64,000 nt of DNA from a virus. The notes below the pieces were generated by a model. That model saw only the letters and a list, made by a program, of their open reading frames with translations, made no database searches and was not told the DNA's origin. Location of the stretch: the IMG/VR virus record IMGVR_UViG_3300010403_000705, positions 1 to 64,000 of that record, one strand, 5' to 3'. Position numbers and translations under genes: made by a program. Position 1 is the stretch's first letter, and each line of letters opens with the position of its first letter. Below, piece after piece: positions 55,318 to 58,709 of this stretch.

Positions 55318-55392
55318 GCTGATTTAGTTTAATTATAAAAACATCTCTCTCGTAAAGAGAAAACATCGGGGAAGTACCGATATTCAGCTCCA
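55318..55392 (+). tRNA. tRNA-Thr (anticodon CGT), degenerate elbow
   Basis: Acceptor GCTGATT pairs with ATTCAGC (one T-T mismatch), T discriminator, CCA encoded. Anticodon arm TCTCT-CTCGTAA-AGAGA gives CGT (codon ACG). The D loop (AATTATAA) lacks GG and the T loop (GGAAGTA) lacks TTC, so the usual D-loop/T-loop contact is missing. May be a decayed or specialised tRNA. Confidence 0.75.
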
Positions 55393-57969: not shown

Positions 57970-57997
57970 TTTGATATAGTAAGACTAGGAGAAAATT

Positions 57998-58342
57998 ATG
58001 TCATAGATTAAATATGGTGATAAATTGTATATCGTTACGCGTGCTGATATAATACCTGGATATCAAGCCGTGCAAGGAATTCATGCGGCAATTCAATTTG
58101 CTACCGAATATCCCGAAATTAATAAAGAATGGTTTGAGAAATCTAACTATCTTGGCTTTCTATCAGTGAATAACGAGCTTGAACTTTTCAAATTAATTGA
58201 AAATGCTTCCAAACAGAATATTAAATTCTCCATTTTTAGAGAACCAGATATAAATAATCAAATTACAGCTATTGCTTTAGCTCCAGGTTCTAGTACAAAA
58301 AAACTTTGTAATAAAATTCCTTTAGCTTTAAAATTAGGATAA
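57998..58342 (+). CDS. pth2: Peptidyl-tRNA hydrolase Pth2-like, with in-frame TAG at codon 3
   Basis: 115 codons from ATG 57998, seven bases after AGGAG. Codon 3 (58004-58006) is TAG; the rest is open. With Gln there, the start is MSQIKYGDKLYIVTRADI. Pth2 marks: VQGIHAAIQF with the conserved His, and AIALAPGSSTKKL. Pth2 frees tRNAs trapped as peptidyl-tRNA. The nearest alternative start is TTG 58025 without a ribosome-binding site and would cut the first strand. Suppression by the CUA-anticodon tRNA at 58637 is the likely expression route. Confidence 0.85.
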
Positions 58343-58344
58343 AT

Positions 58345-58629
58345 ATGAATTTTAGCTCTTCACCATTAAAAATTAGATTAGCAGATTAGCGTGAATGGGA
58401 TATTGCGGCTTATGAGTTGGGCGTATGCTTAGGATTATGGATGGATTTTGGAGCCCCTCACGGAGAAGATCCATGGCATGGTTTAAAGCATATTTTTTGA
58501 ACTGATAATTCAGTAGGCAATTCTCTTCATAATATATTGATCCACTTAGTAGATTGTGGTATTTTACAAGAAAAAGACGATAAGGAATATTTTAGATGGA
58601 ATTCAAATTTTGATCCAGATAAAATATAA
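58345..58629 (+). CDS. Small protein gene with in-frame TAG and TGA codons
   Basis: 94 codons plus TAA from ATG 58345, two bases after the Pth2 stop. TAG at codon 15 (58387-58389) and TGA at codon 52 (58498-58500). Read as Gln and Trp, the frame gives LADQREWDIAAYELGVCLG and KHIFWTDNSVGNSLHNIL, a smooth protein with no other stops. It may need suppression for expression or be a recent pseudogene. Ends 7 bases before the suppressor tRNA. Family not named. Confidence 0.7.
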
Positions 58630-58636
58630 ATCTAAT

Positions 58637-58709
58637 TCTCCTGTAGCTCAGCGGTTAGAGTATCCGTCCCTAAAACGGTAATGCGTGGGTTCGAATCCCT
58701 CCAGGGGAG
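58637..58709 (+). tRNA. Amber suppressor tRNA (anticodon CTA)
   Basis: Acceptor TCTCCTG pairs with CAGGGGA, discriminator G, CCA not encoded. D stem GCTC/GAGT with GG in the loop; anticodon arm TCCGT-CCCTAAA-ACGGT with four of five pairs gives anticodon CTA, reading UAG. T loop TTCGAAT. Position 33 is C instead of the usual T. The weak T1-A72 pair, G73 and the central T of the anticodon match identity elements of bacterial tRNA-Gln. Confidence 0.88.

What the first reader, a model, noticed from the sequence alone, without database searches (positions are those of the whole stretch)
57998..58709. Amber-suppressor tRNA next to two genes that contain in-frame TAG codons
The tRNA at 58637-58709 has anticodon CTA. 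The two genes just upstream each carry one in-frame TAG: codon 3 of the Pth2-like gene (58004) and codon 15 of the next gene (58387). Both genes have good start signals and otherwise read as sensible proteins. Most genes in the window use no in-frame TAG, so the recoding looks local, with the tRNA controlling a small set of genes, including one (Pth2) that itself recycles tRNA. That would be a phage-encoded translational switch.
Basis: partly seen in the sequence, partly recalled or inferred. Interest (0 to 1): 0.92.

Follow-up and report, generated by a model that had tools for sequence, protein, structure and literature searches.

The report
Suppressor tRNA gates phage Pth2 gene
Many very large phages place a stop signal a few codons into a gene for a tRNA-recycling enzyme and carry, usually close by, a special tRNA whose anticodon matches that stop, so the enzyme can apparently be made only when the phage's own tRNA is working; this gives a likely job to phage 'suppressor' tRNAs whose targets authors had looked for and not found.

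Summary
The tRNA (CTA anticodon) and the TAG at codon 3 of the Pth2-like gene are real; the second gene is not a good example.

The Pth2 half holds far beyond this window. Of 147 viral Pth2 loci (104 clusters at 85% identity), 81 clusters have a start codon, 0-4 sense codons, a stop, then Pth2. Usually no other start codon precedes the Pth2 core. Stop and tRNA change together: 61 TAG clusters have a nearby CTA tRNA, 2 TAA clusters a TTA tRNA, 2 TGA clusters a TCA tRNA, and none mismatches. In one TGA phage an HD-domain gene has the same early stop as Pth2. The same stops are ordinary terminators elsewhere in the genomes examined. The pattern occurs in cultured phages: mycobacteriophages I3 and Myrna, Serratia BF, XacN1.

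Best explanation: a standard-code genome uses a dedicated suppressor tRNA to gate translation of Pth2 and a few partners. I found no report of it in the open-access library. Readthrough is inferred from comparison, not shown, and the gate's purpose is unknown. Interest 0.92.

The parts
57987..57991 (+). Shine-Dalgarno-like AGGAG, 6 bases before ATG 57998
   Evidence: Sequence; spacing fits the ATG before the TAG, not the codons after it
57998..58342 (+). Pth2 gene read through TAG: M-S-[TAG]-IKYGDKLYIVTR..., ends TAA
   Evidence: PF01981 E 5.6e-8, PHROG 1866 E 9e-14; profile matches solved Pth2 2zv3
58004..58006 (+). Early in-frame TAG (codon 3), the proposed gate; followed by A
   Evidence: start-(0-4 codons)-stop conserved in 81/104 clusters, purine after the stop in 79 of the 80 scored
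58637..58709 (+). Suppressor tRNA, anticodon CTA, loop CCCUAAA (C33), no encoded CCA
   Evidence: ARAGORN, Rfam RF00005, fold
58345..58629 (+). Small gene with TAG (58387) and TGA (58498); probably recently broken, not part of the gate
   Evidence: Relatives L027/L028 66% identical with TGG at both positions

Best explanation
This is a suppressor-tRNA-gated gene in a genome that otherwise uses the standard code. Ribosomes start at the ATG and meet a stop codon within a few codons. With little suppressor tRNA they terminate and release a peptide of 1-5 residues. Once the phage's own charged tRNA with the matching anticodon is abundant it competes with the release factor, and full-length Pth2 (in relatives also an HD-domain protein, sometimes fused to Pth2) is made. 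SHOWN by sequence comparison: the early stop, its conservation, its match to the tRNA across all three stop codons, the usual absence of another start, and ordinary use of the same stops elsewhere in the genomes examined. INFERRED: that readthrough occurs, which amino acid is inserted, the timing in infection, and why a tRNA-salvage enzyme is tied to the tRNA. A plausible reason is that Pth2 recycles peptidyl-tRNAs, including those of the suppressor, dropped early in translation, so that the enzyme is made in proportion to phage tRNA activity.
For: (1) 81 of 104 Pth2 clusters have start-(0-4 codons)-stop-Pth2: 77 TAG, 2 TAA, 2 TGA (L036 added by hand). (2) Stop and anticodon match without exception where a suppressor tRNA is found within about 10 kb: TAG-CTA 61, TAA-TTA 2, TGA-TCA 2 at ARAGORN default; permutation p below 5e-6 on the relaxed set. 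(3) The TAA and TGA cases lie in different parts of the tree, three of the four inside well supported groups of TAG phages; L276 (TGA/TCA) is 72% identical to TAG/CTA relatives. (4) In the phage of L276/L349 both Pth2 (ATG GAA TCG TGA) and HD (ATG ACA TGG TCG TGA) carry TGA, with two TCA tRNAs. (5) 38 HD-family loci carry an early TAG in both the HD gene and a separate pth2 gene. (6) 72 of 77 have no ATG/GTG/TTG between stop and core. (7) Purine after the stop 79/80, against 53% after TAG terminators. (8) Standard code: TAG ends 18 of 230 long frames in this genome; TGA ends 17 of 38 in L276, TAA 11 of 17 in L099; only 6 early-stop clusters have another in-frame stop in the first 90 codons of the core, against 414 CAA/CAG codons.
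Against: No expression data of any kind. 23 clusters have no early stop, and 17 of them still have a suppressor tRNA near by, so the tRNA-Pth2 link is not only about the stop. In 16 TAG clusters no CTA tRNA was found in the locus at default settings; some turned up on closer search, others did not (record G007). In mycobacteriophages the SD also fits the GTG just after the TAG, which is the annotated start. The window's tRNA has C33 instead of the usual U33. Rows are related, so significance tests overstate independence.
Confidence: 0.88

Rival explanations
1. The phages use a recoded genome (code 15 or similar), so TAG at codon 3 is just a Gln codon that fell there.
For: Some relatives have a further TAG inside Pth2 (L030, L053 and a few more), and Lak phages are recoded.
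Against: The window genome and the relatives examined end genes with the same stop; TAG is fixed at this place while 414 Gln codons in the cores are CAA/CAG; the type switches to TAA or TGA together with the tRNA.
Confidence: 0.04
2. Pth2 starts downstream of the stop at a weak or non-AUG codon (TTG 58025, ATT, GTG), and ATG-X-stop is a tiny leader that controls re-initiation; no readthrough is needed.
For: Mycobacteriophage SD spacing suits the GTG after TAG; TTG 58025 exists here; a two-codon minigene regulates a downstream gene in another system (PMC8708949).
Against: 72 of 77 clusters have no ATG/GTG/TTG between stop and core, and core codon 2 is TTG in only 3 of 55; it does not explain why the anticodon follows the stop type, including a double switch in one phage.
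Confidence: 0.06
3. The in-frame stops are nonsense mutations of decaying genes or sequencing errors.
For: Fits the second gene (58345-58629): TAG and TGA where the relative has TGG.
Against: For Pth2 the stop is shared by 81 of 104 clusters while the protein body stays open and conserved; a 30-base stretch spanning ATG-TAG-GTG is identical in 87 phage records.
Confidence: 0.01
4. The CTA tRNA inserts pyrrolysine (ARAGORN labels it tRNA-Pyl).
For: Anticodon only.
Against: Relatives use TAA/TTA and TGA/TCA in the same place, and the tRNAs are diverse, some with long variable arms. PylS was not searched for.
Confidence: 0.01

Closest known systems
Stop-codon recoding in phages (code 15: crAss-like, Lak)
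   Same: Phage suppressor tRNA reads an in-frame stop; proposed elsewhere to regulate lytic genes
   Different: There TAG is reassigned in many genes; here the code is standard and the stop sits once, near the start of one to three genes, and can be any of the three stops
Synthetic suppressor-tRNA feed-forward 'leak dampener' (PMC7969014)
   Same: A suppressor tRNA must be present for a gene with a silent nonsense codon to be expressed; works with opal stops too
   Different: Engineered; here a natural, conserved pairing
Programmed readthrough / RF2 (prfB) in-frame UGA (own knowledge)
   Same: In-frame stop controls a translation factor gene
   Different: Frameshift or near-cognate reading there; apparently a dedicated cognate phage tRNA here
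lambda bar-type minigenes and Pth (PMC8708949, PMC10192219)
   Same: Start-X-stop ORFs of this size can release peptidyl-tRNA, the substrate of Pth
   Different: The minigene here is the first codons of the Pth2 gene itself; a drop-off role is untested

Membership tests
Pth2 (PF01981) | Sequence match over the domain above the curated cut-off | tested here: met
   33.4 bits against cut-off 23, residues 9-100; profile match to PDB 2zv3
Pth2 (PF01981) | Peptidyl-tRNA hydrolysis | not testable with these tools
   H21, D76 and T82 (core numbering) invariant in A1; activity not known
Recoded (code 15) phage genome | TAG in-frame in many genes and not used as a terminator | tested here: not met
   G000: TAG ends 18/230 long frames; stops between long open frames not notably enriched for TAG (7 of 60)
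Suppressor-gated gene | Early in-frame stop conserved and matched by anticodon in relatives | tested here: met
   65/65 matches at default settings
Suppressor-gated gene | Expression depends on the tRNA | not testable with these tools
   Needs reporter or proteomics
Pyrrolysine system | PylT-type tRNA with PylS | not tested
   PylS not searched; the tRNA matches the general tRNA family

The most novel reading that the evidence does not exclude
A self-coupled tRNA-activity switch: the suppressor tRNA allows synthesis of Pth2 (and the HD protein), which then restore tRNAs, including the suppressor itself, from dropped peptidyl-tRNA or damage, giving a feedback circuit by which the phage senses and secures its own tRNA supply in a host that keeps the standard code.
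Probability: 0.3. Interest if true: 0.96.

Novelty: new variant of a known kind. Interest (0 to 1): 0.92.

Why it matters
Authors of phages XacN1 (PMC5852040) and Summit (PMC9022506) looked for targets of their suppressor tRNAs and found none. XacN1 has ATG-AAG-TAG opening its HD-Pth2 gene, a ready candidate (Summit has no Pth2). The pattern also makes gene finders miss or shorten these genes: Pth2 is unannotated in Serratia BF and starts after the TAG in the Myrna annotation. It offers a natural example of expression control by a dedicated suppressor tRNA, testable with Mycobacterium smegmatis laboratory phages.

Tried and rejected
Whole-genome recoding (coarse frame counts). Gene 2 as second target. 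Atu_ph07, with a TCA suppressor (PMC6102473), was checked for an early TGA: none at the two Pth2 copies inspected, which match archaeal-type Pth2 better; a third copy was not inspected. Summit has no Pth2 match. Bacterial/archaeal genomes: only two relatives, both on contigs with several tRNAs and a CTA tRNA next door, no early stop. Avoidance of TAG readthrough: no clear excess of tandem stops after TAG terminators in this genome (17/30 against 112/212 for TAA). Early-stop genes near the exceptions: nothing convincing. L336 and L341 have an early TGA in HD but a normal-looking Pth2 start, and no TCA tRNA was shown. Rfam elements other than tRNA and tmRNA at the locus: none above threshold in 54-63 kb. 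Structure prediction was not run.

Full report
OBSERVATION. The CTA tRNA (58637-58709) and the in-frame TAG at codon 3 of a Pth2-like gene (ATG 57998, TAG 58004) are as described, with AGGAG six bases before the ATG. The frame matches Pth2. The next gene (58345-58629) has the reported TAG but also a TGA at 58498. Its only relative found (L027/L028, near-identical records) is 66% identical and has TGG at both places; the rest of the gene shows purifying selection (dN/dS about 0.14), so the two stops look recent. I treat it as a probably broken gene, not a target.

RELATIVES. The first six viral relatives all had start-1 to 3 codons-stop-Pth2, five with TAG and CTA tRNAs, one with TAA and a TTA tRNA. 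Larger scans, with phage records and two genome contigs added, gave 147 loci in 104 clusters at 85% identity. In 81 clusters a start codon is followed by 0-4 sense codons, a stop, then Pth2: 77 TAG, 2 TAA, 2 TGA (the script's 80 plus L036, which a filter had dropped). 72 of 77 non-fused cases have no ATG/GTG/TTG between the stop and the core. The base after the stop is a purine in 79 of 80, against 53% after TAG terminators in the first set of loci.

STOP AND ANTICODON CHANGE TOGETHER. With ARAGORN's default setting, 61 TAG clusters have a CTA tRNA within about 10 kb, both TAA clusters have TTA, both TGA clusters have TCA, and no early-stop cluster has a mismatched one; 16 TAG clusters have none in the locus. 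In 49 of the 82 clusters with a suppressor tRNA it lies within 1 kb of the pth2 core start. On the tree the four unusual cases are separate; L276, L099 and L111 sit in supported groups of TAG phages, L265 less securely. The tree has few columns and many unresolved forks.

MORE TARGETS. An HD-domain family (weak Pfam HD match, E 0.0005, below the curated cut-off; PHROG 14850) is fused to Pth2 on either side in some phages, with one early TAG at the front of the fusion (XacN1, CM1, L102), or is separate with its own early TAG. Of 80 HD loci, 38 have an early TAG in both separate genes. Twelve of these carry an ATG after the HD stop; many look like an internal Met, but I did not check them case by case, and the 80 loci were not clustered. 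In the record holding L276 and L349 both genes carry TGA and two TCA tRNAs are present. An 82-codon gene beside pth2 has ATG-X-TAG-AT(T/A) in L059, L089, L093 and L097, while its homologues elsewhere start normally.

CODE. The window's genome ends 18 of 230 long frames with TAG; L276 ends 17 of 38 with TGA, L099 11 of 17 with TAA. Mycobacteriophages use TAG freely as terminator. So the stops are still stops there. These are open-frame counts, not curated genes.

CULTURED PHAGES. I3 and Cane17: ATG-TAG-GTG; Myrna, Phabba, ScoobyDoobyDoo: GTG-TAG-GTG, each with a CTA tRNA 0.5-0.7 kb downstream. Serratia BF and XbC2: ATG-X-CAC-TAG with a CTA tRNA 3.5-3.8 kb away. XacN1: ATG-AAG-TAG; its paper reports two CUA tRNAs with no identified target (PMC5852040).

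MECHANISM. The simplest reading is a gate: the phage tRNA must be present and charged for full-length Pth2. The link of stop and anticodon is strong evidence that the tRNA reads this stop; that this regulates infection is inference. The early position keeps the terminated product to a few residues. tRNA sequences and variable arms differ widely, which suggests that the inserted amino acid is not what is conserved, though charging identity was not determined. Minigenes of this length release peptidyl-tRNA (PMC8708949, PMC10192219), so a feedback through Pth is possible but untested.

LIMITS. 23 clusters lack the early stop, yet 17 have a suppressor tRNA near by at default settings, so the association is broader than the gate. 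Mycobacteriophage SD spacing also allows a start at the GTG after the TAG. C33 in the window's tRNA is unusual. Literature was searched only in an open-access library; the main paper on recoding and lytic genes (10.1038/s41564-022-01127-4) was not held, so priority is not certain.

Noticed in passing
L031:6466-6537 and L031:5980: In the Myrna record the CTA tRNA is annotated tRNA-Ser and pth2 (gp84) is annotated from the GTG after the TAG.
   Followed up: partly
L123:3977-4312: The Pth2 gene of Serratia phage BF has no annotated feature; the Erwinia pEa_SNUABM records listed also show none under the match.
   Followed up: partly
L033:5362-5434, L035:5252-5324: Lak phages have a TTA-anticodon tRNA 0.6-0.75 kb upstream of Pth2 but no evident start-stop pattern; the Pth2 start in L035 is unclear.
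   Followed up: partly
L112, L114, L115, L242, L243: Pth2 genes with a normal-looking start and a CTA tRNA 0.3-0.6 kb downstream of the core start: tRNA linkage without the early stop.
   Followed up: partly
L091, about 10318: Pth2 ends at a TAG that appears to lie inside a tRNA-like sequence with a CTCTAAA loop; not called by ARAGORN.
   Followed up: no
window 55318-55389: Rfam finds a tRNA (45 bits) that ARAGORN did not list, beside two tRNA-Thr genes and the tmRNA.
   Followed up: no
L235 (Atu_ph07): A homologue of the 82-codon gene lies on the locus fetched around a Pth2 gene of another type.
   Followed up: no
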